A stretch of 64,000 bases of DNA from Halomonas elongata (GTDB taxonomy: Bacteria; Pseudomonadota; Gammaproteobacteria; Pseudomonadales; Halomonadaceae). Below the pieces are notes generated by a model. It ran no database searches. It saw only the letters and a program-made list of their open reading frames with translations, and was not told where the DNA came from. The stretch is taken from positions 124,001 to 188,000 of the forward strand of contig NZ_JAJQTQ010000004.1 of assembly GCF_029081005.1 (NCBI RefSeq). The letters are read 5' to 3'. The translations under genes and the position numbers were made by a program. Of this stretch, positions 21,521-37,433 are shown piece by piece (position 1 is the stretch's first letter; each line of letters begins with the position of its first letter).

Positions 21521-21534
21521 ATGCGGCACAGACG

Positions 21535-21560: not shown

Positions 21561-21572
21561 TTCTTCTGGTAG

Positions 21573-21586
21573 TGGTGGAGGCGGCG
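21573..21586. repeat. Distal attachment-site copy of the ssrA end
   Basis: This is a 14-base direct repeat, TGGTGGAGGCGGCG, identical to 37420-37433. It equals the CCA-containing 3' end of ssrA read on the plus strand. Confidence 0.85.
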
Positions 21587-22332
21587 TCCAACTAAAAGTC
21601 TTTTCATAATGCTGATATTTCTGGTTATTTTTGATTTTATGTCTAGATTATGCCCCCAGATATGCCCCCTTATAGACATTTCTGCCCCCGTCTCTGGCTC
21701 TTAAGACACGGCCTGCCAACCCCTACTTTTCCCTACCTGGCTGCCAGTAGCACTAGCCGTTGCTCGACCGATGCATATATGACGTTAGCCGCCCGGCCCG
21801 TCTGGTTTGTCCGTATAACGTCAAGGACGGCAACGCTGCTGCGTTCGTCGCTCCCTAGCAGGCTGTTTGGCCTATGGGGCGATGCCGGATTGACGTTTTC
21901 TGACGTAGCTGTTCGTAACCGGAGTCCTACCCTTCCGGCTTCTCGATGCCGACGCGTAGCAAGCCGAGATCACGACCGATGCAATCGCCCAGTTCCTACT
22001 GATCTTGGCGTTGGCTTGGGTAACGGTCCGGTGGCGCATAGTTGCGCCATGCTGGCCCGGTCCAGCTCGCCAAGATCGATAGGGGGGAAGCGGTTAGCTC
22101 GACCGTCTGCTTAGTATGGGCGTCCGGGAAAAGGGCGGGCATCTGGCTCAGCCGGCAGGGAGTCGCTAGCGCAGCGAGAAATTTGCCGGGCAGCATACGC
22201 CTAAGGAAGGATGACGGTCGCGTTCTCACTCCAATCCTTGGCTTGGGTAAAAATATTTTTTAATATCAAGAGGATAAGCAGAAACCGGCGTTTCCCATGC
22301 ATGAGGCATGATAATAGACGTGGCGGTTTGGC
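21587..22332. other. Non-coding island end with arm-type repeats
   Basis: I see no convincing gene in this stretch; the open frames are short and rich in R, S and P. TGCCCCC occurs at 21651-21657, 21663-21669 and 21683-21689. The first two are part of a 22-base block repeated at 37287-37308 at the other island end. An AT-rich patch lies at 22249-22276. Confidence 0.65.
21651..21672. repeat. Arm-type repeat block, distal end
   Basis: This 22-base block contains two TGCCCCC motifs 12 bases apart and is identical to 37287-37308. The two copies sit inside opposite ends of the island, as expected for integrase arm-binding sites. Confidence 0.75.
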
Positions 22333-22361
22333 TTGACGCTAGGCGATATCTTCCCCATCAT
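22333..22361 (+). promoter_or_regulatory. Predicted promoter of a possible small RNA
   Basis: TTGACG (22333-22338) and CATCAT (22356-22361) are separated by 17 bases. Transcription from about 22368 would reach the strong terminator at 22460-22489. This is a pattern call. Confidence 0.4.
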
Positions 22362-22367
22362 TAGGTT

Positions 22368-22489
22368 GTGTGAGTAAGGCCTAGGTCACCGCGACAGCAT
22401 TTGCATCGTAAGCGTACTGCTTTGTGCGCCGGCCCTAGGGGTCACACCCCTTTCTTAGGCCAATGCGTTTGCATTGGCCTTTTTATTTT
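22368..22489 (+). ncRNA. Candidate structured RNA or attenuator leader before the DUF3800 gene
   Basis: About 120 bases lie between a plausible promoter and a perfect intrinsic terminator, with no reading frame of note. Pairing elements include AGGGG-TCACA-CCCCT (22437-22451), an imperfect stem pairing GCGACAGCA with TGCTTTGTGCGC, and GGCCTA pairing with TAGGCC near the ends. No known RNA family was recognised. It could be a free small RNA or a leader that attenuates the gene starting right after the terminator. The ends are estimates. Confidence 0.4.
22460..22489 (+). terminator. Strong intrinsic terminator immediately upstream of the DUF3800 gene
   Basis: CCAATGC-GTTT-GCATTGG gives a 7-bp stem, followed by CCTTTTTATTTT. 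It ends only five bases before the first ATG of the next gene. Confidence 0.88.
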
Positions 22490-22493
22490 CCGA

Positions 22494-23228
22494 ATGAAGC
22501 CTATCTTGTGTATGCAGCGGTTAATTTTCTTGGATGAAAGTGGTGACCTAGGATGGAAGTTCGATGCTCCCTTTGGACAAGGTGGCTCTTCTAGGCACAT
22601 CACTATTGCTAGCGCATTCACCTGCATAGACGCAAAAAAACACCTTGCTAGAACAGTTAAGAAGCTAAAAAAAGAAGCCGGTTGGCCTCCAAGAGAGGAA
22701 ATGAAGTGGGTGGATATGCCTCACAGACTTCGTATAAAGTTTTGTCAAAGAGCAGTGCAGTTATGCGTTGACCACCCAACAATTGAATACCATGCAATTG
22801 TCGTAGCGAAGCAAGGGGTGTTTTCATGGCTTCGTAATGATGACTCCATGCTATACAACTACTTTATTAAGTGCTCTCTGCTAAATCCAATAACTTCATG
22901 TAGCAGGGTGACGCTTATACCCGACCCTAGAGGAATTGCTCCTAATTCAGGGAATCCTTTAGACATTTACCTCCGTCAAGCCATTTTTGAACACCAATTT
23001 CATGATGGGGGAGGTACTCAGCTTGGTATCAAGCAGATAGATAGCAGTGCAGAGATGGGCATTCAGTTTGCCGACATGCTAGCTGGAGCCATACAACTAC
23101 ATTACGAAGGAAAGACTTCCGACTATTACAATGTTTTGAGGCCTTGCCTATCAGGTTGCTTTGAGTATTTCTTTCAGAACGCTAGACGTGCAGCCGCACA
23201 AAGCTCTGTGATGCAAGCCCCTTACTGA
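22494..23228 (+). CDS. DUF3800 domain protein
   Basis: This 244-residue protein (238 if started at the ATG at 22512) belongs to the DUF3800 family. The RLIFLDESGDLGW motif opens the domain, HITIASAF follows, and acidic residues recur in EEMKWVDM and, near the end, in the conserved MGIQFADMLAGAIQLHYEGK block. The family is thought to have an RNase H-like fold with acidic active-site residues and is common on mobile elements; its activity is not established. Neither ATG has a good ribosome site, and a terminator lies directly upstream. Expression may depend on readthrough. Codon use is AT-richer than the chromosome, in keeping with transfer. Confidence 0.85.
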   Translation: MKPILCMQRLIFLDESGDLGWKFDAPFGQGGSSRHITIASAFTCIDAKKHLARTVKKLKKEAGWPPREEMKWVDMPHRLRIKFCQRAVQLCVDHPTIEYHAIVVAKQGVFSWLRNDDSMLYNYFIKCSLLNPITSCSRVTLIPDPRGIAPNSGNPLDIYLRQAIFEHQFHDGGGTQLGIKQIDSSAEMGIQFADMLAGAIQLHYEGKTSDYYNVLRPCLSGCFEYFFQNARRAAAQSSVMQAPY

Positions 23229-24486
23229 AAATAGTGGACAATGTAGACCTCATGGGGTGACAGCCGAGAGCTGGTTGGCTGTTGCAATAGCCACATGGAC
23301 ATTCCACTTACCGCACCCAGTGCGCACCGCCTGCGAACCAGCATCGACCTTGGCATTCCTTAGCATCGGCGTGTCTCTCGCTCGCGTAGTGACCGAGGAA
23401 AATCCTTCGCGCCAGCGTCATGCATCCAGGGCAGGCGGCCAGCGTTTCAGGTTTAAGGTTTTTTCAGGTCGGTGGGGCTGATTTTTCAATTTCGCGGGAG
23501 TGAAAGTTTCACCTCGTCATCGATGTCCACGGCCTTGCGCCGGTAGGTACTCGACCTCCTCTTACTCCGCCCGCCAGACCGGGCGCCAGCAGCTCATGTC
23601 GCTGTGCCAGCCCCGCCTCCCCACGGCTTCCAACTCGCTTGCCATGACGCCAGGAAAAGTATCTCGATGTCAGGTTGCCGGTACAAGTTTTCACAAGCCA
23701 GGCGGGCGGCTGCGCCTTTTCTCCCGCTGTTCTGGACAGTGGTCGAGTATCCTATGTCCTGTTCCAAGGGGACTGGCGGAACCGGAGAAGAGGTTAATCG
23801 CCCATTGATGCAGTAAAGCCTCGACTGGCTCCAGTCCTTACGGCTCTAATTGCCGGTGGAGAGAGTCAGCCGAGGTCTAGCAGGTCCCACCTGGTACGAC
23901 TCATAGGGGTACTGTTCCCCGGGAGTGGTTCACCAAGCTGGGCAGGCTCAGGATAGCAAGACTGGTCCCGACTAGAAATACAAAGGCATCCGAGCCCCCG
24001 GTCGAAGCCAAAGGCCAAGGGGGGGACTTCAGAACACCCTTTTGATATATCAGCGGCGAAATAGCGGCCAACGGCAGCGCCATCGTCGGAGGACGCGAAC
24101 GCTCCAGGAGTCAGGAGTGACGATGACCGGGCGCGGGGGCGGTATGGGGAAGCGGGCGCAGCCGGTCTTGAGGTTATAGCGCCTCTCGGTCTCGACGTAT
24201 CGCCTCGGCATGCTGTTGTCCTCTGGTTAAGCCATTTGCTACCAGCCTGCACGCTCAAGGCTGAGGCCTGCGAGGGCCAAGTATCTAAACCTGGTATCCG
24301 TTTCGTTTTACCGTTTCATTGCATCATCAGTCGCTGAAGAATCGAGAGCCGCTTGGTGCTTGTGCGCGGACGTATGCCTTGTAAACTGAATACTGCTTCC
24401 GTGCTGGTGAACCACGACCGGGGAATTGAGTCGTACCAGCCGGGAGCCTTACAACGCTTGAGCGCTGGAAGTCGCAGGTGCTGCAC
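23229..24486. other. Apparently non-coding or decayed 1.25-kb stretch
   Basis: No gene with recognisable domains lies between the DUF3800 gene and hsdR. Open frames are short and of odd composition. One 53-codon minus-strand frame (24050-24211) has a fair ribosome site but no recognised relatives. The stretch may be the remains of lost cargo genes. Confidence 0.6.
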
Positions 24487-27400
24487 TTATTGATTGACTG
24501 AAGGTCGATGCTTCTCCAGCAGCAATCGCAGCACCAGGTGTCTCAGCTTTACCTCATTCTCCGACGTTTCCATTGCCCGTTCCGCCATGCTCTGGTGCTC
24601 GTGCATATCATCCAGCACCAAGTCCTGCAGTTTCTGCGGGAAGGAGCCGTGCATGATCTGGTTCGGGTCGTTGTTCAGCACCTGGTTCATCACCGATGCT
24701 TCGCGCTCCAGGCGTCCAACAAGGCCTTTGGCGTAATGGAGCTGGTCATCCTCGCTGATGTCGCTACCGAAGATCTCGTTCAGTGACTCGATGATCTCGG
24801 AAAGGCGCTTAGTCTCGGGGTCGTGGGCCTTGCCAGAGCCGACGGAAGTGACTGATGAGAGGTTGTACTCGCCCTGTGTGTCGCCCAGTTCCAACTGGTT
24901 CTCAGCCTGTTTGGTCAGCCGGTAATGGGTTAGCTCCAGTTCGGATACATCAATGTCTTCCTCCAGCCGCTCGATGCGCAGCATTGGGTGGAGGGCTCTA
25001 GCGAAGACGCAAAGCTGCTCCAGGTCGCGGTCGTCATAGAACACGATCTGGGAGAGGAACTCGTAGGCGCGAACAAAGCTCTGCAGGTCCTTGCGGAAGG
25101 TATCGAGGGTGTCGCGTTGCTCGCCGGCCTGTTTTAGGTCGTGCTCGGCGCGTTTCTGGGCCCGTTCATCGCCATTTTTCTCCGCTTCCCGGGCCTGTCT
25201 TCGGGCTTCCTGTACCTTCTTCTGGGCGTCGTCATAACGGGCCTTGAAGCGATCCTTGGCGGGCTGGCAAGCGTTGGTCAGGCGAGCTGATTTGGCCCTG
25301 GGGTCGAAGAACGCTGTAGCGAATGCCTCTACCTCGCTCCAGGTGTAGATGTCGGACTCGTTGAGCTTGTCGAACAGGTCGTAGACCACCTGGGCATCGG
25401 AGACGTTGGCTAGTTCGGTCTGCTGGTAATAGGGCTCGAAGGCGTCCTGGATATCCGAGGCGTCGTTGACGAAATCCAGGATGAAGGTTTCCTTGCCCGA
25501 GAAGACGCGGTTCAGACGGGACAGAGTCTGAACGCACTCCACGCCCTGCAGCTTCTTGTCCACGTACATTGCACAGAGCTTGGGCTGGTCGAAGCCGGTC
25601 TGGAACTTGTTGGCCACCAGCATCACGTTGTAATCGTCCGTGTCGAATGCCTCGGCGTGGTCGCGGCCGTGCAGGTCCGGATTGAGCAGCTTTCTGGTTT
25701 CGGTCACCGGCTCAGGGATTACATCGTCGGCGGGCACCTCGCCGGAGAACGCCACCAGCGGGAAGACATCCGGGTAGTTCTGCTCCTGAACATACTTGCG
25801 CATCGCCAGCATATAGCGCACCGCTTCCTGGCGGCTAGCCGTCACCACCATGGCCTTCGCCTGACCGTCGAGCAGGTGGCGCACGTTGGCGCGGAAGTGC
25901 TCAACGATGACTTCCACCTTCTGGTTGATGTTGTGTGGGTGCAACCGCACCCAGCGCGCTAGGGTGGCTGAAGCCTTGCGGGACTCGACTTCCTCTTCAT
26001 CGCCATGGGGATGCGCCAACTTCCAGGCGACGTTATAGGTCACGTAGTTTTTGAGCACGTCCAGGATGAAGCCTTCCTCGATGGCCTGTCGCATGGAGTA
26101 CAGGTGGAACGGCTCCGGGAGGTTGTCCTCGCTTGCCGGTTCGTGGGAGTTGGGCGGGCGCCCGAACAGCTCCAGCGTCTTGGCCTTGGGTGTTGCGGTG
26201 AAGGCGTAATAGCTCAACTGGGTGGGTGGCTTGCGTGAGGACACCGCTGCATCCAGCACTTCCTCCGCGCTGATTTCGCCTTCGTCGTATTCATCGCCAC
26301 CGCCTAGTAGGGCCTTCAGTTTGGTGGCAGAGCTGCCGGTCTGGGAGGAATGGGCTTCGTCGGCGATGACCGCATAGCGGCCCTGGGCGAGCGCTTTATC
26401 CTTCTCCAGCGCATCGTAGAGCGCAGGGAAGGTCTGGATGGTGACCACGATGATGCGCGTGCCCTTGCGCAGCGCGTCGGCCAGCTGCTCAGACTTGCTC
26501 TGGGTGGTTTTCTCATCCCGGGTGATGGCCCGGACCATGCCCTCGGTGCGCTCGAACTGGCGAATGGTGTTCTGGAGCTGGCTATCGAGCACCGTGCGGT
26601 CGGTGATGACGATGACCGAGTTGAACAGCTTGGCGTCGTTGTCGTCGTAGAGGCCGGCGAGCTGGTGCGCCGTCCAGGCAATGGAGTTGGACTTGCCGGA
26701 GCCGGCGCTGTGCTGGATCAGGTAACGCTCGCCGGCGCCTTCCTTGCGGGTCGTCTCGATGAGCCGGTTGACCACTTCCCGCTGGTGATAGCGCGGGAAG
26801 ATCAGCGCTTCCTTTTTCTGAATGTTGCCGTGGAAGTCTTCCTCTTCCTTCTGCTCCAGGTGCAGGAATCGCTGCAGGATCCGCAGCCAGGCATCCGGGG
26901 CGAAGACGTCGTTCCAGAGATAGCCGGTGGCGTATTCGTTGGGATCGGTCGGTGTCGGGTTACCCGCCGCACCTTCCGGGGTGCCCTTGTCGAACGGCAG
27001 AAAGCCCGTGTCCTTGCCGGCCAGGCGGGTCGTCATGGCCACCCGGTCCTGGCTGACGGCAAAGTGCACCAGCGCGCCGGTCTTGAACGCCAGCAACGGC
27101 TCCACCTGCTTGTTGGTGGGCGCCTTCAGCGGCCGGTCGTCCTGGTACTGGCGCTTGGCCCGCTCCACGGACTGCTTGAACTCGCTCTTGAGCTCCAGTG
27201 TGGCCGTGGGAATGCCGTTGACGAACAGCACCAGGTCCAGACGGGGGTTGTAATTCTCTCCGGCATGGGGCGAGTAGGAGACTTCCGGTACCACGCGCAG
27301 CCGGTTGGCGTGGTAGCGCTGCTCAGACTCCGGGTTCATGCCGTGATCGGGTTTGAAGGCACAGGCCTCGATGTAGTGGCCAGGCAGACGCACCGGATTG

Positions 27401-27657
27401 CGCAGCACGAAGAGCGTACCCTTCTTGCGCCGTTCCCGATCCACCGCCAAGCACAGTTGGCGCTCCGGATCCCCTGGGTAGGCCTTGGCGAATTTCTGCC
27501 AGCGGTCCGGGTAGGCCTCCTTGAAGAAACCCACCAGGTCCTGGGTGTAGAGGGCCAGCCCCCGGTCATAACCGTCCGTCGTACCGGTCTGCCACCCCTG
27601 GGTGGTCATCTCGTTGATGATGTCCTTCTGGAACTGGTGCTCTCGTTCGTCGGCCAT
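24487..27657 (-). CDS. hsdR: Type I restriction enzyme, R subunit
   Basis: This 1056-residue HsdR protein has an N-terminal endonuclease domain with the PD-(D/E)xK pattern (LDLVLFVNGIPTATLELKSEF, about residues 140-180). The superfamily 2 helicase motor follows, with motif I HSAGSGKSNS near residue 315, motif II DEAHSSQTG near 435, and the FTATPK motif III. The later NKFQTGFDQPKL and LSRLNRVFSGK motifs and a coiled, charged C-terminal region (about 850-920) that docks on the methylase complete the protein. It cuts DNA lacking the host methylation after translocation. It is the last gene of hsdM-hsdS-hsdR, 73 bases after hsdS, and looks full length. Confidence 0.95.
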   Translation of the reverse strand: MADEREHQFQKDIINEMTTQGWQTGTTDGYDRGLALYTQDLVGFFKEAYPDRWQKFAKAYPGDPERQLCLAVDRERRKKGTLFVLRNPVRLPGHYIEACAFKPDHGMNPESEQRYHANRLRVVPEVSYSPHAGENYNPRLDLVLFVNGIPTATLELKSEFKQSVERAKRQYQDDRPLKAPTNKQVEPLLAFKTGALVHFAVSQDRVAMTTRLAGKDTGFLPFDKGTPEGAAGNPTPTDPNEYATGYLWNDVFAPDAWLRILQRFLHLEQKEEEDFHGNIQKKEALIFPRYHQREVVNRLIETTRKEGAGERYLIQHSAGSGKSNSIAWTAHQLAGLYDDNDAKLFNSVIVITDRTVLDSQLQNTIRQFERTEGMVRAITRDEKTTQSKSEQLADALRKGTRIIVVTIQTFPALYDALEKDKALAQGRYAVIADEAHSSQTGSSATKLKALLGGGDEYDEGEISAEEVLDAAVSSRKPPTQLSYYAFTATPKAKTLELFGRPPNSHEPASEDNLPEPFHLYSMRQAIEEGFILDVLKNYVTYNVAWKLAHPHGDEEEVESRKASATLARWVRLHPHNINQKVEVIVEHFRANVRHLLDGQAKAMVVTASRQEAVRYMLAMRKYVQEQNYPDVFPLVAFSGEVPADDVIPEPVTETRKLLNPDLHGRDHAEAFDTDDYNVMLVANKFQTGFDQPKLCAMYVDKKLQGVECVQTLSRLNRVFSGKETFILDFVNDASDIQDAFEPYYQQTELANVSDAQVVYDLFDKLNESDIYTWSEVEAFATAFFDPRAKSARLTNACQPAKDRFKARYDDAQKKVQEARRQAREAEKNGDERAQKRAEHDLKQAGEQRDTLDTFRKDLQSFVRAYEFLSQIVFYDDRDLEQLCVFARALHPMLRIERLEEDIDVSELELTHYRLTKQAENQLELGDTQGEYNLSSVTSVGSGKAHDPETKRLSEIIESLNEIFGSDISEDDQLHYAKGLVGRLEREASVMNQVLNNDPNQIMHGSFPQKLQDLVLDDMHEHQSMAERAMETSENEVKLRHLVLRLLLEKHRPSVNQ

Positions 27658-27730
27658 GACGTTATATGTTCCCTGATTTTACCGAATTGCGCCCCACTGT
27701 AGACCATAAGCCGCATTCCTTGAATTGGGC

Positions 27731-29095
27731 TCAGGCCGGCGTTTCTTCGCTGGGAGTGGATTGGGGGAGGGTTTCAGAAACCGGCGGTTCCCATTCGCGG
27801 ACATCGATCTTGCCGGTGACGGCGGCGGAGATAAGTGCAGAACGGCGCTCTCGCAGTAGCTCGATGCCCATCACTGCCTTGTCTAATAATTTGGCTACAG
27901 AGCGCATAGATGTATTTAAAGTCTCAACAATTTTAATTTGCTCCTGTTTTGGAGGGAGGGGGACCTTGATACTGGAAACAATTTCCGGATTGAGGTTGTC
28001 CATTGTAGAGCCGACGGATTCAAGCTTGAGGCGCTCCCTAAAGGCGCTAGTTCTTATCAATTCTGAGAGAAAGTTTGAGTTCACCTTATCGCCTAAAGAA
28101 ATCTTCATTGAACCGGTGCCACATAGCCAACCTTCTTGGTACTCATGGACCACCGCACAACGCCCCATTTCTCCACGACGACCGACAATGAGGTCCCCAG
28201 CAGAAAGCTTATGATGAGAAAGCCTTAAGACTACATCGTCGCGCACTGAAAGATAGTTGTCTGGGACAATTTGGCCGTCCTTAATGTTCGCTGGATTGAT
28301 AACTGGTACCCCTGATTCAACGTACTCGTGAGCATGAAGTTGGCTTCCAAAAGGACCAGTCTGAACTTTTTCTGCAATCAAACCTATGGGAACAAGTTCC
28401 CAATGCTCCGGAACCTTTCTAAGCCACTCCACCCCGGAATCCTTCATCGCCACATCCGGGTCCAGCCCCTTGGTCACGGCATGGGAAATCACCGCCTGGC
28501 GCTTTTCCTTGAGCAGATCGATCAGGCGTTGCTGTTCGGTGATCAGGGCGTCGATGCGGGCAGTTTGGTAGTCTAGGAAGCGGGTGATTTGGGTTTGTTC
28601 CTCATTAGAAGGAGGAATGGTCAAACTTAAATTCTCTACTTGCTCGGAGGATACTGCCTCGAAGGTGCTGCCAGTTGCAATAGAGTCAAAAGCTGGACCT
28701 GCCGAGGAGAGTGCCCAGGATAACAAGCTCCTGTTCGTTCTCTGACCTGGTGAGATTGCACACAAGCCACGTCCAATTCCGTACTCTCGATCAGCGACAT
28801 TTAAGGCTCCAACAGGGGCTCTGACAGAAAGCAAAATGTCACCAGCATGAGCATGTTTTTTAGCTGTTTGGCAGTAGAGCTTAGCCGTTGGGCTCTTCAG
28901 TCCAAATTCTGCATTGCCCTGAAGAAAAGGTATCGCATCCAGGCTTTCGTTATCCGTGTAATCACTAGAATCGGGAGACTGCCCCATATTCACGGAAGCA
29001 GCATGTTTTAAGCGGGTTACCCTCCAATGGCTAGGCACTTCACCAAGCCAATCAGCTCCAGTCGCCTTGTACTCTGGATAACTCGGATAGCTCAT
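27731..29095 (-). CDS. hsdS: Type I restriction-modification specificity subunit
   Basis: This 454-residue HsdS protein has two target recognition domains (about residues 15-170 and 225-385), each beginning with a W-L-G/R-x-V-P-x-H-W pattern. Each is followed by a conserved helical spacer (about 175-220: RIDALITEQQRLIDLLKEKRQAVISHAVTKG; about 390-435: LLRERRSALISAAVTGKID). It sets the DNA sequence recognised by the complex. The recognition-domain DNA is clearly more AT-rich than the spacer DNA, suggesting domain exchange. The start ATG overlaps the hsdM stop by four bases. Confidence 0.94.
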   Translation of the reverse strand: MSYPSYPEYKATGADWLGEVPSHWRVTRLKHAASVNMGQSPDSSDYTDNESLDAIPFLQGNAEFGLKSPTAKLYCQTAKKHAHAGDILLSVRAPVGALNVADREYGIGRGLCAISPGQRTNRSLLSWALSSAGPAFDSIATGSTFEAVSSEQVENLSLTIPPSNEEQTQITRFLDYQTARIDALITEQQRLIDLLKEKRQAVISHAVTKGLDPDVAMKDSGVEWLRKVPEHWELVPIGLIAEKVQTGPFGSQLHAHEYVESGVPVINPANIKDGQIVPDNYLSVRDDVVLRLSHHKLSAGDLIVGRRGEMGRCAVVHEYQEGWLCGTGSMKISLGDKVNSNFLSELIRTSAFRERLKLESVGSTMDNLNPEIVSSIKVPLPPKQEQIKIVETLNTSMRSVAKLLDKAVMGIELLRERRSALISAAVTGKIDVREWEPPVSETLPQSTPSEETPA

Positions 29096-31068: not shown

Positions 31069-31163
31069 TGGAGCTCCGTGCAAAGGGGTGTTGGGTCGGT
31101 GCGATCCACCCTGGGATGTTCGTGGCGCAGGCCTCAAAGGAGAGCTGCAGATGGTTTTTCTGT

Positions 31164-31169: not shown

Positions 31170-31555
31170 CGCCAGCAATCTGGTGCCAGAGAGCCATCCA
31201 CTATGGTGGGCAACTGTATCCCCCTGGAAACCTCCCTTCAATGTCGCTGTCCACGTCGAGTTGATCGGCCATCGCACTATCAGTGACAGTGACGCTCTGC
31301 TGGGTGAAGCCTCCGACAGCAACGGCGTAAGGCCCGCTTTTGCGAAACATTTGCGTCGATCAAGGTGCTCTGCATCGAGCTCGACATTCACTACCCAGTT
31401 GGTTCCGCACCGTGGCGCGGCAGCGGACCATGGGTAGGGTCAACCCCAATACGAAGGCCCTGCTCGGCGGCTTCGGTCATACTGGCGTGGGTGATCGTCA
31501 TCATAGTGGATGCATCTATTCGGTCGCCTGTTCTGTGTTTGCTCTGAATAGGGAA

Positions 31556-31575
31556 AGGCCCGCCTCAACGGGCCT
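31556..31575 (-). terminator. Terminator of the island replication operon
   Basis: AGGCCCG and CGGGCCT form a 7-bp stem with a 6-base loop, followed on the minus strand by TTTCCC. It lies 16 bases after the stop of the last gene of the alpA-to-helicase operon. Confidence 0.65.
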
Positions 31576-31591
31576 GTTCTCGACGTGGTGA

Positions 31592-31885
31592 TCAGGGTTC
31601 CACGGTGGCATCGGACCAGCGGGCTCGGGCAGCGGCCAGCGCCTCTTCAGGTGACATTAGCTTGCCGACCATGGTGGCGATGGGCTTGCCGCCTTGGATC
31701 ACACGCCATGCAAGCCGCTTGTCACTGTTCGCTGGCGCCAGCTCTTGCAGCAGCTCGGCCTTGTGCGACTTGATCCAGACGCGGGTTTCTTCGGTGATGT
31801 TCTCGGCAGGCCAGACGTAAAGGCGGCCACCAGGCAGGGGCCCGGCCTCCAATTCGTGAGCCTTGAGGTAGTCGAGCGCAGCCAT
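31592..31885 (-). CDS. Small TubC-docking-like hypothetical protein
   Basis: This 97-residue protein has an N-terminal part (LKAHELEAGPLPGGRLYVWPAENITEETRVWIKSHKAELLQEL) resembling the short TubC-type helix-hairpin fold found in many phage and plasmid proteins. An acidic/basic helical C-terminus with LMSPEEALAAARARW follows. Its function is unknown. Its ATG overlaps the stop of the Toprim-helicase gene (TAATG), so it is co-translated with the replication protein. It is the last gene of that operon. A non-overlapping alternative start was not found. Confidence 0.7.
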   Translation of the reverse strand: MAALDYLKAHELEAGPLPGGRLYVWPAENITEETRVWIKSHKAELLQELAPANSDKRLAWRVIQGGKPIATMVGKLMSPEEALAAARARWSDATVEP

Positions 31886-34137
31886 TAGAACTCCTCCCCG
31901 GACACCTTGGGCCAATAATTTTCTTCAGCCGAAGTCCCAGAAGTCACAAAGTCACACCCTCGACCATTCGAACTGTGACTTTGTGACATGGGGGACATTG
32001 GTTCAGGAACGTTTTTCCCGATCCTCCAGCGGATGACACCGCCACCCCCCTTACCGAGACTCTTGCACTCTATCCCGAGTTGTCGCAGAGCGGGCGCTGA
32101 TCGGCGCATCGCATCACCAAGCCCTTTGCCGGACCGTGGCCAGGCATCGGCTCCTGTCGGCTTGTAGTCGGCGAGGATGGCCAGCCAGCGCTTGGCCGGT
32201 TCGTCTCGTGTTTCGCCAGGATGGATCTCGGCCCAATCGCGAATGGCCGTCGCCACCGGGCTGGCTTCGAGTGTGCGCTCGAGGCCGTCTTGCCGTGCCG
32301 CTGTGAACTCGGCCATGAAGTCTTCGGGGTCGCGTCCCATCGCCTTGGCTACAGCCATGCCAAGATAAGCGAACTCGACCAGCCTTGGGCGTCGGTGCGT
32401 GGGTAGCCCCATGTCGGGCAGTTGCTTGAGCGCCTTGGATGCTATATCCAGCAAGCCGCCGATGATCTTTGGCCGGTTGGCCTCGAAGTCGGCATCCATT
32501 CGGTCCTTGGCCTGGGCATCCTGAATCACCGGCAACTCGATGGTGATGGTTCGGCTTACCAGGTCTTGCTGAGTGACAGCAGCCGATATGCCGTTGAGGA
32601 TGATGGGGCGCTTGAGCTGGATGACGCTCTCATCACCATCGGTGTAGAGTTTGCGCCGGGCGAAGCCACCACCCGTGGCCACAACGCACATGGCATCCTG
32701 CAAAGGTGCTGGCAAGTGGCTGGCGTTTTCGATGCTGATGACATGGTTTACGCCTCCGCTGACGAACAGGTCTTCGGCAGACTTGGGCGTTCCACGCAGG
32801 TCGGCGGCGTTGGGGTCGATCAACCGTCGCAATGCAGCTTGAGTGCCGCTTTTCCCGCTGCCTTGCTCACCCAGCAGCTCGATGATCGGGTAGGGTGTGT
32901 CGGGGCGCAGGCACTCGACCAGCCAGGCCACAACGATGATCCGGGCATTCTCGGGGATGTTAGCCACGCGCCATAGCGGCTCGATGCTGCCATTACTCAG
33001 AGGCTCTGGGAGCGTGTCAGCGCTTTCCGACCGGCAGAACATTAGTTCGCTTTGCTCTTCAATAGTCCAGGCGCCGGAACGTAGGTGAATACAGCGACTA
33101 CTGCCCGCAATGCCAAGATCCAGCCAGTAGTGGCCATCACCGCCGGCCGAGCGGATGTAGACGGTGCGATGCTCCTTCATCGCAATACCTTCGAGCGTCA
33201 TACGCGCTTCCCGCAGAGCCTGATCCTTCACCGCCTTTTCGTGCTGGGCGTAGAACTCGGCGGTCAACCAATGGCGAAAGGCGCGACTGCCGATGGACCA
33301 TACCTCACCTGTGCCGCGATGCCGGGCATAAGCCACGTCATTGTCGTCATGGAATAGGTCGTTCCAGGTCTGGACGAATGCCACGATCAGATCGGTTTGC
33401 GACTGCTTCTTGTCGTGCTCTTCGTTGCCCTTCTCTTCCTGTAACTGGGTATCTGGAGCCTGTTCACGGGTAGCCTGTAGCTGCTCCTTGACGGCTTGGA
33501 GCCCTTCTCCCTGGCGAACGTCGCTCCAGTCCTTGCACGTGGCTGGGCAGGCCCACTTGATCCCAGCCCGTTCGGCGGCACGATGCCCCGCCTCGTCATT
33601 GTCCACGGCGGCTAGCAGTTCGGCGCGACCAGCAGCAGTGCGCAGCACCTTGACGACGCTGGCCACCATCATCTCCCCAACACAGCAGGCAACGGGGTGC
33701 CCGGTGGCCGCATGGATCGAGTAGCCGTCAGCCAGGCCGGCACAGACGATCAACGGCCCTGACAGGCTCAGCAGGTCCGCCGGCACGAAGCCAATGGGAG
33801 TGAAGGTGCCGGACACCTTGCTTCCCGGTGTCGTGAACTTGTCACCCGGTTTGGCGTCCTCAGACTTCTGTATCTTCTCCGGCAAGATTCGCTCGAAGCC
33901 GGCAGACGCACCGGCAGCATCCACCAGCTCCCGAAGGATTATCGATCCGCGCCAGTCCTCGGCGCCATGGCATCGCACCTCGCCCGTCTCGACGGTGACG
34001 CTTGTCTGGCAAACCGCGTGCAGGTCAGCCAGGGCGATCTCCTTGCGTTCTAGGTAGGGGTGGCCATAATGGTCGGTGTTGTGACTGTTATGCGCCTGCC
34101 CCTGCCGGGGGGCGGGCGCTTTCATTTGTTCGGCCAT
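31885..34137 (-). CDS. Toprim-domain primase/helicase-like replication protein
   Basis: This 750-residue protein has an N-terminal Toprim-like domain (about residues 110-205; LIVCAGLADGYSIHAATGHPV, then LLAAVDNDEAGHRAAERAG with the aspartate pair) and a C-terminal P-loop ATPase. The ATPase shows IIELLGEQGSGKSGT near residue 440 and an SIENASHLP block further on, as in DUF927/DnaB-like helicases of satellites. It likely starts island replication. The usual Toprim glutamate (CEG) reads CAG here, so primase activity may be lost or altered. The ATG at 34137 follows GGGGGAAGG; it overlaps the 3' end of the previous small gene by 16 bases. Confidence 0.85.
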   Translation of the reverse strand: MAEQMKAPAPRQGQAHNSHNTDHYGHPYLERKEIALADLHAVCQTSVTVETGEVRCHGAEDWRGSIILRELVDAAGASAGFERILPEKIQKSEDAKPGDKFTTPGSKVSGTFTPIGFVPADLLSLSGPLIVCAGLADGYSIHAATGHPVACCVGEMMVASVVKVLRTAAGRAELLAAVDNDEAGHRAAERAGIKWACPATCKDWSDVRQGEGLQAVKEQLQATREQAPDTQLQEEKGNEEHDKKQSQTDLIVAFVQTWNDLFHDDNDVAYARHRGTGEVWSIGSRAFRHWLTAEFYAQHEKAVKDQALREARMTLEGIAMKEHRTVYIRSAGGDGHYWLDLGIAGSSRCIHLRSGAWTIEEQSELMFCRSESADTLPEPLSNGSIEPLWRVANIPENARIIVVAWLVECLRPDTPYPIIELLGEQGSGKSGTQAALRRLIDPNAADLRGTPKSAEDLFVSGGVNHVISIENASHLPAPLQDAMCVVATGGGFARRKLYTDGDESVIQLKRPIILNGISAAVTQQDLVSRTITIELPVIQDAQAKDRMDADFEANRPKIIGGLLDIASKALKQLPDMGLPTHRRPRLVEFAYLGMAVAKAMGRDPEDFMAEFTAARQDGLERTLEASPVATAIRDWAEIHPGETRDEPAKRWLAILADYKPTGADAWPRSGKGLGDAMRRSAPALRQLGIECKSLGKGGGGVIRWRIGKNVPEPMSPMSQSHSSNGRGCDFVTSGTSAEENYWPKVSGEEF

Positions 34138-34298
34138 TCGCCTTCCCCCATCTCCCTGACCAGTTTCTCCAGGCGCTCGACGTAGCTCATGAGCATCCAT
34201 GTGCCGACGGTGGCTTTGCCCATGTACTGAGCACGTGCCAAGTCGTCGCGGATGTCAGCAGCCAAGCTTTCAAGCTTGATACGCTCGCGATCATTCAT
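34122..34298 (-). CDS. 58-residue hypothetical protein in the island operon
   Basis: This is a small helical, charged protein (MNDRERIKLESLAADIRDDL, then YVERLEKLVREMG). It has a very strong ribosome site (GGAGGAGG, seven bases before the ATG). Its start overlaps the previous stop by four bases, and its end overlaps the helicase start. No family was recognised. Such coupling argues that it is real and made along with the replication protein. Confidence 0.65.
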   Translation of the reverse strand: MNDRERIKLESLAADIRDDLARAQYMGKATVGTWMLMSYVERLEKLVREMGEGEWPNK

Positions 34299-34753
34299 GA
34301 CGCCTCCTCCTTGCCGGCAATGCTGGCTTCCAGGCGGCGGGCTTTGGTCATGTGATGGTTGTAGCGCTTCAGGCGAGTGCAAGCGCTGGAATCGGCAAAT
34401 AGTGCGGCGCGTGCCATGGCCCGATGGGCGGCAGCGCGTGCAGATGGATTGCGGGTAGGGGATAGGCGTGAGATTGACATGGGTAACGCTCCTTGAGTTG
34501 AGGAGTCGTCCCCGGATGCCGCCAAGCACCGGATGGGGGCGACTGTACGCGAGTTGGCGGACCGGCACTCAAGGAAACCGGCATGCCCGAAGGCATCACG
34601 CGCACAGCCGCCATAACGCATGGCAGGCACAAAAAAAGCGCCCGTCATGATGGTGGCGCTCGTGCGCCTTGAGTGATCCGATCCGCCAAGATCGGCTGCC
34701 GATTTTGCGGCAGCACGAGGATAGTAGGCGTGGGCGCTAGTCGTGGTCAACAT
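34295..34753 (-). CDS. Ash/Icd-like phage protein with a possible internal start
   Basis: The 152-codon frame contains a stretch (GAFFVPAMRYGGCARDAFGHAGF, near residues 38-60) typical of the Ash/Icd-like proteins of P4-type phages, which are linked to host cell-division inhibition. Its ATG overlaps the alpA stop (TAATG), supporting translation from there. Inside it, an ATG at 34480 with AAGGAG nine bases upstream would give a separate 61-residue basic protein (MSISRLSPTRNPSARAA onward). Either or both may be made. The C-terminus overlaps the next gene by four bases. Function is inferred from family resemblance only. Confidence 0.6.
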   Translation of the reverse strand: MLTTTSAHAYYPRAAAKSAADLGGSDHSRRTSATIMTGAFFVPAMRYGGCARDAFGHAGFLECRSANSRTVAPIRCLAASGDDSSTQGALPMSISRLSPTRNPSARAAAHRAMARAALFADSSACTRLKRYNHHMTKARRLEASIAGKEEAS

Positions 34754-34971
34754 TACGCTGCACCCCCTTGGTTGCGGCTGGCCTCGATACGCTGCTCAAT
34801 CCACTCATTGATTTCAGACTCGACCCAGGCAACAGCGCGCGGGCTAATCTGAATCGGAGAAGGAAAGTCGCCGGCATTGATGAGTCGATGCAGTGTGGTA
34901 TTCGAGATGCCACAGCGTTGCAGCACCTCGGGACGGCGGATGAGGGTGGAAGACTGGTTGGTTTTGGTCAC
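34753..34971 (-). CDS. alpA: AlpA-family excisionase/regulator
   Basis: This 72-residue helix-turn-helix protein of the AlpA type has LIRRPEVLQRCGISNTTLHRLINAGDFPSP, then ISPRAVAWVESEINEWIEQRI, matching the MerR-like fold used as excisionase or activator in P4-type elements. I prefer the GTG start at 34971, which has GAGGAA six bases upstream and gives the usual family length. An ATG at 35004 has no ribosome site. It probably controls excision or expression of the operon it leads. The stop overlaps the Ash/Icd-like start. Confidence 0.88.
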   Translation of the reverse strand: MTKTNQSSTLIRRPEVLQRCGISNTTLHRLINAGDFPSPIQISPRAVAWVESEINEWIEQRIEASRNQGGAA

Positions 34972-35074
34972 GCTTGGTTCCTCACGGAATGAATGCATGA
35001 CCAAGGTTAGGATTACGGAAGCGCCCTAAAAATGTGCGCGTGTACGGAAAAAGGGGGTTTCCGTACGGGAGAGG

Positions 35075-35782
35075 TTATTTTCTGGGTGGTCGTCCTGGCT
35101 TTGTGGCGTAGTCTGGAGCCACTTTGCTAATCGTTGCTCGTATCTTGTCGAGTGACTTTGGCCAGTGTTTATGAGGGCCTTCGTCGCCTTGGCCCTGACG
35201 TTCCTCGGCCTCCTTCACAACGTCGTCGTGGACCATGCTTGCCACCTCGCCAATACGAAGTTCCTTGGCGTGGTCCTCCGCCCATATCTCGCTGGCGCGT
35301 TCCCTCATCCACTGTTTGCCACGTTCCCGCTCGGCATCGACGCTCCAGAATCCTGTCTGGCGCCGAATGTCTGCAATGGCGTGCCTCGACATCTCGGCGT
35401 GGCGATTTTTGTCTGGCATCGTCAGCTTGCCGTAGAAGTAGCCGGCCAGCAGGAGACGATGCCCATTGCTCAGACGCTCAAGTTCTTGGTCTGTAGCGCT
35501 ATGCTGAATTTCCTGCACAAGCTTTAGGCAGAGGTCAGCGGCATACTCCGTGGCGGGTGCTTGCTCATCGCTGGATCGGGCCATTTGCACCAGCTCGCTT
35601 ACCATCTGGGCAAGTACGTCGCGACCGTGTAGTAGACCGTCAGGGCTAGTAAGCGACAACTCGTCAGCCATTGTCTTTGGCGGTGGGGTGTTCATTGCTC
35701 CGGCAATTAGACCTCGGTCGCTTCCATGGCGTTGGACTTTGTCAGGTATGTCGAGCCCAAACGTCTGCTCGTTATCAGACAT
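35075..35782 (-). CDS. 235-residue hypothetical island protein
   Basis: I recognise no named domain. The protein is mainly helical, with DVLAQMVSELVQMARSSDEQ, a KLVQEIQHSATDQELERLSNGHRLLLAGYFYGKL region, and a basic C-terminal tail ending KPGRPPRK that could bind DNA. The ATG at 35782 has GAGGAG nine bases upstream. It lies between alpA and the integrase on the same strand, a common site for unnamed regulators in P4-like islands. The function is unknown. Confidence 0.7.
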   Translation of the reverse strand: MSDNEQTFGLDIPDKVQRHGSDRGLIAGAMNTPPPKTMADELSLTSPDGLLHGRDVLAQMVSELVQMARSSDEQAPATEYAADLCLKLVQEIQHSATDQELERLSNGHRLLLAGYFYGKLTMPDKNRHAEMSRHAIADIRRQTGFWSVDAERERGKQWMRERASEIWAEDHAKELRIGEVASMVHDDVVKEAEERQGQGDEGPHKHWPKSLDKIRATISKVAPDYATKPGRPPRK

Positions 35783-35896
35783 CGCGCTACTCCTCACGCA
35801 CTCCAGATGGGGAAGGCTGGCAGGCGTGGTGGAGTTGCCACGCTTTCGGGTGATCGGCCCTAGCCAGCCAACGGGGTGCGGCGGCTGCCGCTTGTC

Positions 35897-37135
35897 TCAG
35901 GCCCCGGCGCGGATCGGCACCACGTTGTCGGCACCATCTCGCAGGGTATCCAGGTAATCGGCCCAGCTTTGCAGCATCTCCCGGCGCTGCTCCAGGTGAG
36001 AAGTCCGGTTGTAGGCGCGACCGTTGCTGTCCTTCACAGCGTGCGCCAGTTGCTGCTCTATGTAGTGCTCCGGATAATTCAGGCGCTCGGCCAGGATCGT
36101 GCGGGCCATCGCCCTGAAACCGTGCGCTGTCATCTCGCCTTTGAAGCCCATCCTGTCCAGCGCGGCCTTGATCGTATTGTTACTCATCGGTCGTTTGCTG
36201 CTACGGACGCCGGGAAAGACATACTCGGCTCGCCCGGTCAGCCCGGTCAGCCCGTGCAGGTCGCGCAGGATCGCCACGGCTTGGGCCGGCAGTGGAACGA
36301 TATGGGCTTGCCCCGTCTTGCTGGCATGAAAGGTCCAGGTGGCTTCCTTCAGATCTATGTCGGTCCATCGGGCTTGGCGCAGCTCGCCGGGACGGGTGAA
36401 GACCAGGGGCGCCAGCTTCAACGCGGCGATGGTGACTGGCTGGCCGCCGTAGCCCTCGATCGCTCGCAGCAGGCCGATTACCTCCTTGGGATCGGTCACG
36501 GCTGCATAGTGCTTGGTCTTGTGCGGGCGCAGTGCGCCGCGCAGATCAGGCACAGGGTCACGCTCGACGCGCCCGGTGGAGATGCCATAGCGGAATACCT
36601 GGCCGCACAGTGTCTTCACTCGATGGGCCGTCTCGATATGGCCGCGCTCCTCGATGCGGCGCAGGCAGTCCAGTAGCTCGGGTGGGGTGATTTCGGAGAT
36701 GGGCCGCTTGCCGATGGTCGGGAAGGCGTCACGCTCCAGGCGGCGTTTGTTCCGCTGGTAGTGGGCGGGCACCACGTCGTGCTGGTGCACCTTCTCCAGC
36801 CACTCGACGGCCACGGCCATGAAGGTATTGGCGGCGGCCTCCTCGCCTTGCTGGCGGGCGATGCGCTTGGCGGCGCTGGGATCGATGCCCTGGGCAAGCT
36901 GGCGCTTGGCCTCGTCGCGGACCTCGCGGGCAGCCACCAGGGAAATGCCGGGATAGACGCCGATGGCCAGCCGCTTCTCCTTGCCGGCGTGGCGGTACTT
37001 CATCCGCCAGTATTTGCTCCCGCTGGGGGATACCTCCAGATAAAGGCCGCCGCCATCGGTCATCTTGAACGTCTTGTTCCTGGGCTTGGCCGTCTTAACG
37101 GCGGTAGCGGACAGCTTGTTGGTCTGGCGGCTCAT
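35897..37135 (-). CDS. int: Tyrosine integrase of the island (P4 type)
   Basis: This 412-residue tyrosine recombinase has an N-terminal arm-binding domain (TAVKTAKPRNKTFKMTDGGGLYLEV onward, DUF4102 type), a core-binding domain (about residues 100-185) and a catalytic domain. The catalytic residues are the arginine in TRPGELRQARW, the HGFRAMART block (histidine and arginine), the LAHAVKD histidine and the tyrosine of GRAYNRTS. It would insert the island at ssrA. The ATG at 37135 has GAGG seven bases upstream; a TGCCCCC motif (inverted) fills the spacer, hinting at self-repression. A longer frame to 37324 runs through the arm-repeat region and is rejected. Confidence 0.95.
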   Translation of the reverse strand: MSRQTNKLSATAVKTAKPRNKTFKMTDGGGLYLEVSPSGSKYWRMKYRHAGKEKRLAIGVYPGISLVAAREVRDEAKRQLAQGIDPSAAKRIARQQGEEAAANTFMAVAVEWLEKVHQHDVVPAHYQRNKRRLERDAFPTIGKRPISEITPPELLDCLRRIEERGHIETAHRVKTLCGQVFRYGISTGRVERDPVPDLRGALRPHKTKHYAAVTDPKEVIGLLRAIEGYGGQPVTIAALKLAPLVFTRPGELRQARWTDIDLKEATWTFHASKTGQAHIVPLPAQAVAILRDLHGLTGLTGRAEYVFPGVRSSKRPMSNNTIKAALDRMGFKGEMTAHGFRAMARTILAERLNYPEHYIEQQLAHAVKDSNGRAYNRTSHLEQRREMLQSWADYLDTLRDGADNVVPIRAGA

Positions 37136-37318
37136 GGGGGCACCTCGGGGCGGTGGTCGCCTTATGCCCCCTTGTCGGCAGTGCCAGATGCCCCCAAGGG
37201 TAGGGGGCGGGCTATCGGCCAGCCAGGCGCCGGATAGCGCGGCTTCTGGCAGGTTTGGGGGCATCAGGGTATCGGCTTCAGCGTTGTGCCCCCAGATATG
37301 CCCCCTTAGGTGGGGGCA
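37136..37318. repeat. Integrase arm-site cluster at the ssrA end
   Basis: TGCCCCC occurs at 37165-37171, 37189-37195, 37287-37293 and 37299-37305, and its complement GGGGGCA at 37136-37142, 37257-37263 and 37312-37318. The block 37287-37308 is identical to 21651-21672 at the other end. Confidence 0.75.
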
Positions 37319-37354
37319 TGTCAAGGAATGCTATGAAACGTCCAGGCACAAGAA

Positions 37355-37372
37355 AGGGGCCCTGAGGCCCCT
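37355..37372 (-). terminator. Island-borne replacement terminator after ssrA
   Basis: AGGGGCC-CTGA-GGCCCCT forms a 7-bp stem, followed on the minus strand by TTTCTTG. It lies 48 bases past the ssrA end and could stop transcription that lost its native terminator. Confidence 0.6.
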
Positions 37373-37419
37373 GTTCATGCGGTTTCTAGTGCTTCTTGGG
37401 AAGTCCTGAAACCTAGGTT

Positions 37420-37433
37420 TGGTGGAGGCGGCG
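37420..37433. repeat. ssrA-proximal attachment-site copy
   Basis: This 14-base TGGTGGAGGCGGCG is identical to 21573-21586 and is the 3' terminus of ssrA including CCA on the minus strand. Confidence 0.85.

What the first reader, a model, noticed from the sequence alone, without database searches (positions are those of the whole stretch)
21573..37433. Integrated island in ssrA with P4-satellite-like replication genes and a defence-type cargo arm
The sequence shows a 14-base duplication of the ssrA 3' end, an integrase beside ssrA, and the order int, hypothetical, alpA, Ash/Icd-like, small ORF, Toprim-helicase, followed by hsdMSR and a DUF3800 gene. P4-type satellites are known to carry anti-phage cargo. 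No structural phage genes are visible, so this looks like a satellite or a decayed relative with restriction and DUF3800 functions.
Basis: partly seen in the sequence, partly recalled or inferred. Interest (0 to 1): 0.72.

Follow-up and report, generated by a model that had tools for sequence, protein, structure and literature searches.

The report
Phage-satellite island in Halomonas tmRNA gene
A 15.9-kb mobile island, most likely a satellite that borrows phage particles to spread, sits in the tmRNA gene of a Halomonas bacterium and carries an anti-viral restriction system; it resembles known satellites but mixes their parts in a new way.

Summary
The 14-bp ssrA-end copy (21573-21586) lies beside the native ssrA terminator. 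Relatives show unoccupied sites, and sister islands with the same integrase sit in the same site with the same core at both ends. Genome G234 carries nearly the same island: int, orf240-type gene, alpA, helicase, small ORF, hsdMSR, DUF3800. It also has a small-terminase gene that the window island lacks.

The island has a P4-type RNA immunity module: C4 RNA plus isrK/a1b1 target matches. Guide and target co-vary across eight elements in three of four pairings tested. Its helicase is not P4 alpha, has no Pfam match, and its listed plasmid relatives are 27-35% identical over the helicase half. The same cassette is followed by small-terminase genes in 4 of 12 elements found, one with a capsid gene. 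P4's psu, sid and delta were not detected.

Best reading: a Gram-negative PICI-type phage satellite, integrated, repressed and probably excisable, with restriction cargo and perhaps wholly dependent on a helper for packaging. Whether it still moves is untested. A new variant of a known kind, neither P4-like nor PICMI by definition. C4/isrK RNAs in PICIs are already published.

The parts
21409..21530 (-). degenerate older copy of terminator plus ssrA 3' end (probable scar of an earlier event), outside the island
   Evidence: similar to terminator + ssrA 3' end of G014/G018 and, by eye, to tandem units in G017, G021, G023
21531..21572 (-). native ssrA terminator, displaced to the far end of the island
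   Evidence: fold of 21528-21572: -19.7 kcal/mol, z -4.7; lies directly beside ssrA in unoccupied relatives; not called by the simple scan
21573..21586 (+). attL core, 14-bp copy of the ssrA 3' end
   Evidence: same core at the far end in G234, G237, G206
21651..21672 (+). arm-type repeat TGCCCCCAGATATGCCCCCTTA (attL side), putative integrase arm site
   Evidence: 22-bp exact repeat of 37287; 24-bp near-copy in G234
22401..23228 (+). DUF3800 gene (domain from about residue 41); cargo
   Evidence: Pfam 43.3 bits; phrog_9243 219.9 bits; PADLOC PDC-M04A 37.6 bits; another DUF3800 gene in G234
24487..27657 (-). hsdR, type I restriction subunit; cargo
   Evidence: 66% identical gene in G234 island
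27731..29095 (-). hsdS, specificity subunit; cargo
   Evidence: 35-38% in G234/G241
29092..31137 (-). hsdM, N6-adenine methyltransferase (ORF; start may be internal); cargo
   Evidence: 69% in G234 and G241 islands
31592..31915 (-). orf107, small ORF overlapping the helicase gene; TubC_N-like, weak
   Evidence: conserved after the helicase in relatives; TubC_N 19.7 bits, below cut-off 26
31885..34200 (-). Toprim-helicase, replication protein; N-terminal half differs among relatives
   Evidence: PHROGs replication (76.2 bits) and DNA primase (73.1 bits) within residues 23-274; alignments A1/A3; no Pfam match at 1e-3
34122..34568 (-). doubtful small ORF overlapping ash in another frame
   Evidence: matches in relatives may only reflect C4 RNA conservation
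34295..34753 (-). ash/Icd-like ORF that contains the C4 and isrK RNAs (name by resemblance, recalled)
   Evidence: 47-72% identical frames in G001, G141, G083, H. ventosae, G237, G206, part of which may reflect RNA conservation; no Pfam, PHROG or NCBIfam match
34490..34498 (-). downstream C4 target (9 nt complementary to the C4 loop)
34532..34618 (-). C4 antisense (immunity) RNA
   Evidence: Rfam RF01695 78.1 bits
34631..34714 (-). isrK-family element (P4 seqA-like) ending in a hairpin and U-run
   Evidence: Rfam RF01394 56.1 bits; P4 control 60.8 bits
34667..34689 (-). upstream C4 targets: 34667-34675 (9 nt, C4 loop) and 34682-34689 (8 nt, C4 linker)
34675..34727 (-). c4-a1b1 target element, overlaps isrK
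   Evidence: RF03163 41.0 bits, below the gathering score of 46.7; P4 scores 44.1, also below
34753..35004 (-). alpA, excisionase/regulator
   Evidence: PF05930 62.4 bits; 40% to P4 orf88/Vis, E 2e-13
35075..35797 (-). orf240, gene between int and alpA; same place as PICMI iolg/icg
   Evidence: 30-45% relatives in G234, G241, G227, G005; no accepted family match
35800..35870 (-). int-alpA RNA in the leader of orf240
   Evidence: RF02996 36.4 bits against a gathering score of 35.8; 6-sequence alignment, 7 of 21 predicted pairs with compensatory change, 4 of them within this stretch
35897..37135 (-). int, P4-family tyrosine recombinase (ORF open to 37324)
   Evidence: Pfam; 39% to P4 Int, E 4e-86; closest relatives next to ssrA
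37287..37308 (+). arm-type repeat (attR side)
37355..37372 (-). island-borne terminator that replaces the native ssrA terminator
   Evidence: terminator scan; fold of 37345-37382 -21.3 kcal/mol, z -3.7; same hairpin by eye in G003, G004, G006, G011, G016
37420..37433 (+). attR core inside the ssrA 3' end
37420..37798 (-). ssrA (tmRNA), integration target

Best explanation
It is a phage satellite of the Gram-negative PICI kind, 15.86 kb, integrated at the 3' end of ssrA in a Halomonas chromosome. Shown by sequence: identical attachment cores and arm-type repeats at both ends; an island terminator in place of the displaced native one; int, orf240, alpA, immunity RNA, helicase, orf107 and hsdMSR in one orientation, then DUF3800 in the other. 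Inferred: Int recombines the 14-bp core, so tmRNA keeps its sequence whether the island is in or out. In the quiet state C4 RNA pairs with targets upstream and downstream of itself and makes the early transcript stop before the helicase gene, as P4 CI does. A helper phage relieves this; AlpA and Int excise the island, the Toprim-helicase replicates it, and helper terminase and capsid package it. The type I restriction system and possibly DUF3800 protect the host from other phages. The island lost, or never had, the small terminase of its sister, so it would depend on the helper for packaging choice, or is stranded.
For: Site and ends. Unoccupied sites. Integrase specificity: 9 of 11 integrases at 78% identity or more lie next to ssrA; all 12 at 71% or less (E <= 1e-90) lie within about 1.5 kb of a tRNA gene. 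Satellite character: the G234 and G241 islands with the same integrase carry a TerS (phrog_1206, 127.6 bits for G234; 56% identical frame in G241). The helicase cassette is followed by TerS in G152 and G031, and by a Clp-protease/capsid fusion plus Nu1-type TerS in Marinobacter ELB17. Immunity module: C4 and isrK at 78 and 56 bits with P4 as positive control. Guide-target covariation in 8 elements: 12, 8 and 11 of 40320 permutations as good for three of four pairings. Cargo shared with G234 and G241. The host also holds a P2-like prophage with capsid and terminase genes, a possible helper.
Against: No TerS was found in the window island, and no sequence shared with the resident P2-like prophage beyond control (2 exact matches of 15 bp or more in 39.8 kb, against 5 with a 36-kb chromosomal stretch). 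The Toprim half lacks the usual glutamate (CAGLADG; the usual motif is recalled). The fourth guide-target pairing was not significant (1918 of 40320), and own target was best of 8 for only 3, 5, 5 and 1 guides. The guide segments were chosen. Pfam does not call the G152 TerS-like protein a terminase (only HTH matches); PHROGs does. Salmonella IsrK has a different published role (PMC4825925, passages), so its role here rests on the P4 comparison. Two related elements (G016, G083) carry a Mob_Pre relaxase instead, so conjugative mobilisation is possible in this family. No excision, induction or transfer data exist.
Confidence: 0.7

Rival explanations
1. A decayed satellite: it came in as a satellite but has lost packaging (no TerS) and perhaps primase activity, and is now a fixed defence island with int and att remnants.
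For: TerS present in sisters G234 and G241 but absent here; Toprim glutamate missing; remnants with only int fragments at the same site in G004 and G011.
Against: All core ORFs are open, both att cores are identical and arm repeats present; C4 guides still match their targets over 7-9 nt; EcCICFT073 is packaged without its own TerS (PMC6092414, passage); the Toprim variant is shared with Chromohalobacter and Marinobacter, so it is not fresh decay.
Confidence: 0.17
2. An integrative mobilizable element that moves by conjugation using a helper plasmid, with satellite-derived control genes.
For: Mob_Pre relaxases in the G016 ssrA island and downstream of the G083 helicase cassette; helicase-half relatives occur on plasmids.
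Against: The island ORFs searched gave no relaxase match; TerS genes follow the cassette in 4 of 12 elements, a relaxase was found in 1 of 12 (not every downstream ORF was searched).
Confidence: 0.08
3. A P4-like satellite in the strict sense.
For: Int 39% and AlpA/Vis 40% identical to P4, C4 and isrK RNAs in the same order; P2-like prophage in the same genome.
Against: No psu, sid or epsilon match at E <= 1; alpha and delta only at E 0.64 and 0.65; helicase without P4 alpha domains.
Confidence: 0.02
4. A chance collection of genes between two unrelated copies of a GC-rich 14-mer.
For: 14 bp is short; 0.085 chance matches expected for any 14-mer of the ssrA end.
Against: Unoccupied sites, displaced terminator, arm repeats and sister islands with the same core at both ends.
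Confidence: 0.01

Closest known systems
Gram-negative PICIs such as EcCICFT073 (PMC6092414, passages)
   Same: integrase, alpA regulator, replication protein, accessory genes, specific attachment site; TerS only sometimes; C4 and isrK RNAs are reported in several PICIs (PMC10111431, passage)
   Different: ssrA site in Halomonas; helicase outside the Pfam families; no TerS or recognised cos; large type I restriction cargo
PICMI (Vibrionaceae, PMC10803314, passages)
   Same: int, unknown gene, alpA, primase order; no capsid remodelling genes; defence genes between primase and the attachment site
   Different: site is ssrA, not fis; primase is neither DUF3987 nor DUF5906; larger; P4-type immunity RNA (not reported in the passages I saw)
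P4 and P4-like satellites (NC_001609; PMC8628076, passages)
   Same: Int family, AlpA/Vis, C4 RNA and its target
   Different: no psu, sid, delta, epsilon or alpha found; P4-like elements are described for Enterobacterales (abstract)
P4-family prophages in ssrA of E. coli and Shewanella (mentioned in PMC11131426; the name CP4-57 for the E. coli one is recalled)
   Same: P4-family int at ssrA
   Different: their excision costs tmRNA its G:U pair (passage); here the 14-bp core is identical at both ends, so it should not
Halomonas prophage Phm1 in ssrA (PMC11131426, passage)
   Same: same gene used as site in the same genus
   Different: Phm1 is a 40.8-kb prophage with 54 predicted genes
Pseudomonas satellite AH14b (PMC4936722, passages)
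   Same: 16.8 kb, P4-like integrase, AlpA and primase, no capsid-size genes
   Different: found packaged in helper capsids by experiment; no ssrA site mentioned in the passages seen

Membership tests
Gram-negative PICI | integrase with its own specific attachment site | tested here: met
Gram-negative PICI | AlpA-type regulator | tested here: met
   PF05930 62.4 bits
Gram-negative PICI | primase/replication protein | tested here: met
   PHROGs replication 76.2 bits and DNA primase 73.1 bits for the Toprim half; helicase half has no curated family
Gram-negative PICI | TerS or helper cos site for packaging | tested here: inconclusive
   no TerS; no sequence shared with the resident prophage beyond control; other helpers unknown; sisters have TerS
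Gram-negative PICI | no structural phage genes | tested here: met
   main island ORFs searched; short ORFs not all searched
Gram-negative PICI | induction by a helper phage | not testable with these tools
   needs culture
PICMI | int, AlpA and a DUF3987/DUF5906 primase | tested here: not met
   helicase has no Pfam match at 1e-3; definition read in a passage
PICMI | insertion next to fis (optional in one passage, mandatory in another) | tested here: not met
   site is ssrA; definition
P4-like satellite | psu, sid, delta | tested here: not met
   tblastn of 13 of the 14 annotated P4 proteins (P4p05 left out) against the island
P4-like satellite | alpha primase-helicase | tested here: not met
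P4-like satellite | P4-type Int and AlpA/Vis | tested here: met
   39% and 40% identity
P4/P1-type C4 RNA immunity | C4 RNA with complementary, co-varying targets | tested here: met
   three of four pairings; activity not tested
cf-PICI | own capsid and packaging genes (definition recalled) | tested here: not met
   none in the window ORFs searched; present in the G001 ssrA island
Type I restriction-modification | HsdM, HsdS and HsdR | tested here: met
Integrative mobilizable element | relaxase and oriT | tested here: inconclusive
   no relaxase match; oriT not searched

The most novel reading that the evidence does not exclude
The helicase plus small-ORF cassette marks an unrecognised satellite lineage of Halomonadaceae and Marinobacter. 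It keeps one helicase half while swapping its primase half, integrase and immunity RNA, and changes its way of travelling: small terminase, own capsid protein, relaxase, or full dependence on a helper. Because the helicase has no Pfam family, tools that define satellites by primase domains could miss it.
Probability: 0.35. Interest if true: 0.6.

Novelty: new variant of a known kind. Interest (0 to 1): 0.42.

Why it matters
It extends PICI-type satellites with P4-type RNA immunity to Halomonas, shows modules (integrase, immunity, helicase, terminase, restriction cargo) reshuffling at one hot spot, and gives a ready set of sister islands and unoccupied sites for testing what a satellite needs in order to move. 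The displaced and replaced ssrA terminator suggests how such islands use tmRNA without harming it. The immunity guide, different in each of the eight elements compared, could make compatibility between co-resident satellites predictable.

Tried and rejected
P4 alpha as the source of the helicase: rejected. P2-type cos shared with the resident prophage: searched as exact matches of 15 bp or more, none beyond control. TerS remnant in the window: tblastn found nothing (best E 0.12, outside the island). Zorya ZorC as the function of orf240: only 16 and 15 bits, rejected. AlphaFold model of the helicase: mean pLDDT 45.8, pTM 0.32, unusable, so no fold search was made; the second structure job was not used. 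Viral-contig search with alignment A1: no relative confirmed. each used two short peptide patterns and so will miss distant relatives. Weaker helicase matches (54 of 201 genomes at E <= 1e-3, many on short stretches only, and elements in G005, G067, G108 that share mainly the Toprim half) were not counted among the 12 elements. Rows dropped before the covariation count: G206, whose C4 has the same score and layout as that of G237, and L098, which is the same record as L080. Chance duplication: rejected (see observation). tmRNA damage by excision: rejected, because the core is identical at both ends. Literature: six searches. In the papers listed I saw none on Halomonas satellites in ssrA; lists were capped and subscription journals are mostly not held. 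Papers were seen as listings or passages only, none in full.

Full report
What was checked. The tmRNA gene is at 37420-37798 on the minus strand. Its last 14 bases recur exactly at 21573-21586, the only other 14-mer match listed. The 14-mer by itself is weak: 0.0022 expected on one strand, 0.085 for any 14-mer of the last 60 bp. Context makes it certain. Directly outside the copy is a strong hairpin followed by T residues (-19.7 kcal/mol, z -4.7; the simple scan did not list it). The same kind of hairpin stands directly beside ssrA in 14 of the 20 same-genus loci that I read (by eye; ssrA was found in 23 of 24 other same-genus genomes; G008, G009 and G010 were not read). The other 6 of 20 carry an island or its remnant there. 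Joining the window's outer flanks reproduces the unoccupied site of G017. In G018 (94% identical over 984 columns of ssrA and smpB) window 3560-13597 is followed after about 730 bp by ssrA, so at this place the island and also 13.6-21.4 kb are absent.

Ends and target gene. A 22-bp direct repeat lies inside each end (21651, 37287), as expected for arm sites of a P4-family integrase; this role is inferred. The island separates ssrA from its native terminator and supplies another one at 37355-37372 (fold -21.3 kcal/mol, z -3.7). The same island-borne hairpin is present, by eye, in the ssrA islands of G003, G004, G006, G011 and G016. Since both cores are identical, tmRNA sequence should be the same in the integrated and excised state, unlike the P4-family prophages of E. 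coli and Shewanella (PMC11131426, passage).

Same integrase, same site. In the genus, 20 of 90 genomes have an integrase match at E <= 1e-90, 23 matches in all. Of the 11 at 78% identity or more, 9 lie next to ssrA (G000, G237, G241, G206, G227, G234, G016, G006, G248). The two others (G162 contig 36 and G226, both partial matches) show no ssrA in the stretch held. All 12 at 71% or less have a tRNA gene within the 1.5-kb flank: Lys 5, Met 5, Ser 1, Leu 1. Exact cores at both ends were found in 4 of the 9 (window, G234, G237, G206). In the other 5 only the ssrA core was found in the stretch examined: 19.9 kb in G241, 10.5 in G227, 6 in G248, 16 in G016, 3.6 in G006.

Sister island. G234 carries at ssrA, in the same order: int 88%, an orf240 relative 44%, alpA 70%, helicase 75% over residues 222-760, orf107-type ORF 46%, a TerS (phrog_1206, 127.6 bits), hsdM 69%, hsdS 35%, a DUF3800 gene (74.8 bits; here between hsdS and hsdR) and hsdR 66%. 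It shows no C4 at the gathering score and no ash match. G241 has int 90%, orf240 45%, alpA 68%, a DUF927 replication protein, TerS 56%, hsdM 69% and hsdS 38%. G237 and G206 have int, alpA, ash, C4 and isrK, and DUF927, with a 356-aa ORF instead of an orf240 match. So the window island combines pieces found separately in its sisters. It has no TerS. A low-identity hsdS with conserved hsdM and hsdR is what specificity exchange gives; that is inference.

Replication cassette. The 771-aa protein has no Pfam match at 1e-3. Its first 270 residues match phage replication and primase families (76.2 and 73.1 bits). Its helicase half is closest, in plasmids, to proteins of Methanothrix, Methylobacterium, Streptomyces and others at 27-35% (the 20 records listed of 38). 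In phages the top match covers 76% of the query at 25% (one Microbacterium phage, two records); the 18 other records listed, of 45, cover 20-32%, all within the Toprim half. Viral contigs gave no confirmed relative. With the alignment as query, 8 of 275 family genomes and 5 of 390 order genomes matched at E <= 1e-60, two of them in both sets. With Marinobacter ELB17 that is 12 elements. The helicase half is conserved while the Toprim half differs in sequence, and it is missing from the G152 ORF, which has a separate zinc-ribbon-like gene (22.9 bits, below the cut-off of 24.9). The Toprim halves of the window, Chromohalobacter and Marinobacter read CAGLADG where H. ventosae and V. rituensis read VEGEK. 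A downstream small ORF of the orf107 kind follows in 10 of 12: by tblastn in the window, G234, H. ventosae/G011, G141, G152, V. rituensis/G266, G083 and ELB17; by position and TubC_N similarity, weak for G031, in G484 and G031. It is not seen in G251 and G290. A TerS follows, at once or after up to three genes, in G234, G152, G031 and ELB17, 4 of 12; Pfam alone did not name the G152 protein as TerS. ELB17 also has a Clp-protease/capsid fusion (PF00574 111 bits, PF25209 189 bits). G083 has a Mob_Pre relaxase further on. Type I restriction genes lie downstream in the window, G234, G141 and G152; for G141 and G152 I did not determine the element's far end. C4 passed its threshold in 4 of 12 (window, G141, G083, G011). 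Contig lengths of G141, G152, G266 and G011 equal those of Chromohalobacter sp. 296-RDG, Halomonas sp. PR-M31, V. rituensis and H. ventosae, so the window's family is Halomonadaceae (family name recalled). G011 is of the window's genus, hence Halomonas.

Immunity RNA. C4 (78.1 bits), isrK (56.1) and, below threshold, c4-a1b1 (41.0) lie in a row. P4 itself, searched as a control, gives 74.9, 60.8 and 44.1. The C4 loop differs in all eight elements compared. It has a perfect 9-10-nt complement about 30-36 nt downstream in 8 of 8 and a 6-9-nt complement upstream in 8 of 8. Permuting partners: as-good sums in 12, 8 and 11 of 40320 permutations for upstream loop, upstream linker and downstream loop, but 1918 of 40320 for downstream linker. 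Own target was the best of 8 for 3, 5, 5 and 1 guides. With six elements the ranks were 3, 4, 3 and 6 of 720. The guide segments were set after a first look, and the elements are related, so permutation counts are not exact probabilities. In G248 the C4 lies about 15 kb from ssrA, and I did not determine which element holds it. That C4 and isrK mark CI and seqA relatives in PICIs is published (PMC10111431, passage). In P4 the effect is early transcription termination (same passage); here it is inferred. In Salmonella, IsrK has another published role (PMC4825925, passages). An int-alpA RNA (36.4 bits, just above its threshold of 35.8) lies before orf240. In six loci its region aligns with 21 predicted pairs, 7 with compensatory change in at least one sequence, 4 of these inside the Rfam match; the covariation term was slightly unfavourable (+0.28). 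In the relatives whose loci were searched it did not reach the gathering score.

Place in the known world. In PICMI the order is int, an unknown gene needed for excision, alpA, primase, then a defence hot spot before the attachment site (PMC10803314, passages); the window has this order. PICIs sometimes carry TerS and sometimes use cos (PMC6092414, passages). AH14b of Pseudomonas is a 16.8-kb satellite packaged in helper capsids without capsid-size genes (PMC4936722, passages). Defence hot spots in P4-like satellites are known (PMC9122126, passages). P4 membership fails on psu, sid, delta, epsilon and alpha; PICMI membership fails on primase type and site. The functional likeness to PICI is good; induction is untested.

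Helper. The host genome has one Terminase_6N match at E <= 0.001, in a P2-like prophage on contig 137 with scaffold (316 bits), capsid (481.5), small terminase (135.5), large terminase (198) and baseplate J (94); its portal match (37.2) is under the cut-off of 39.1. P2-like prophages are the helpers of P4. The island shares no cos-like sequence with it beyond control, so this is only a possibility. Prophages of other kinds were not searched for.

Verdict. A real, well-bounded integrated island, most likely a PICI-type satellite with P4-type RNA immunity, a replication helicase outside Pfam and a restriction cargo. It is a new variant of a known kind. Mobility, helper and cargo activity are untested.

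Noticed in passing
window 13598-21408: A second, lower-GC segment (0.54-0.60 against about 0.65) absent at this place from G018, with transporter, GntR-like regulator, aldo-keto reductase, FAH-type and SDR genes (named by eye; looks like a sugar-acid or fucose catabolic cluster), and a tRNA-like fragment at 21303-21321 shortly before the island (ARAGORN calls no tRNA there).
   Followed up: partly
window 21409-21586; G017, G021, G023; G237 (L130:12979 and 13096); G206 (reversed L132:19637 and 19739): Tandem units of terminator plus ssrA 3' end, spaced about 100-117 bp where measured, look like scars of repeated island gain and loss at ssrA.
   Followed up: partly
L060:567-10924 (G001): Another ssrA island with C4/isrK, DUF3987 helicase, Gp13-like capsid protein (28.4 bits), TerS (phrog_309) and TerL, with no tail genes seen by eye: resembles a capsid-forming satellite at the same site.
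   Followed up: partly
L078:7471-16464 (Marinobacter sp. ELB17): Compact element with int, HTH regulator, the same helicase and orf107 type, a Clp-protease/capsid fusion and Nu1-type TerS beside tRNA-Leu: looks like a satellite; its ends were not mapped.
   Followed up: partly
window 31885-34200 and relatives: One helicase half is paired with at least two Toprim types; one type lacks the expected catalytic glutamate.
   Followed up: partly
L044:10271-11671 (G016) and L070:240-1649 (G083): Mob_Pre relaxases in elements that share the integrase type or the replication cassette of the window.
   Followed up: no
L128 and L135 (own genome, contig 137): P2-like prophage; by eye a Dam-like methylase beside its portal gene and a cytosine methylase with a Vsr-like gene further left.
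   Followed up: partly
L081:20700-20946; L069:9341-9457: HEARO RNA in Vreelandella rituensis; ALIL pseudoknot (by eye with an IS-type transposase frame) inside the G083 element.
   Followed up: no
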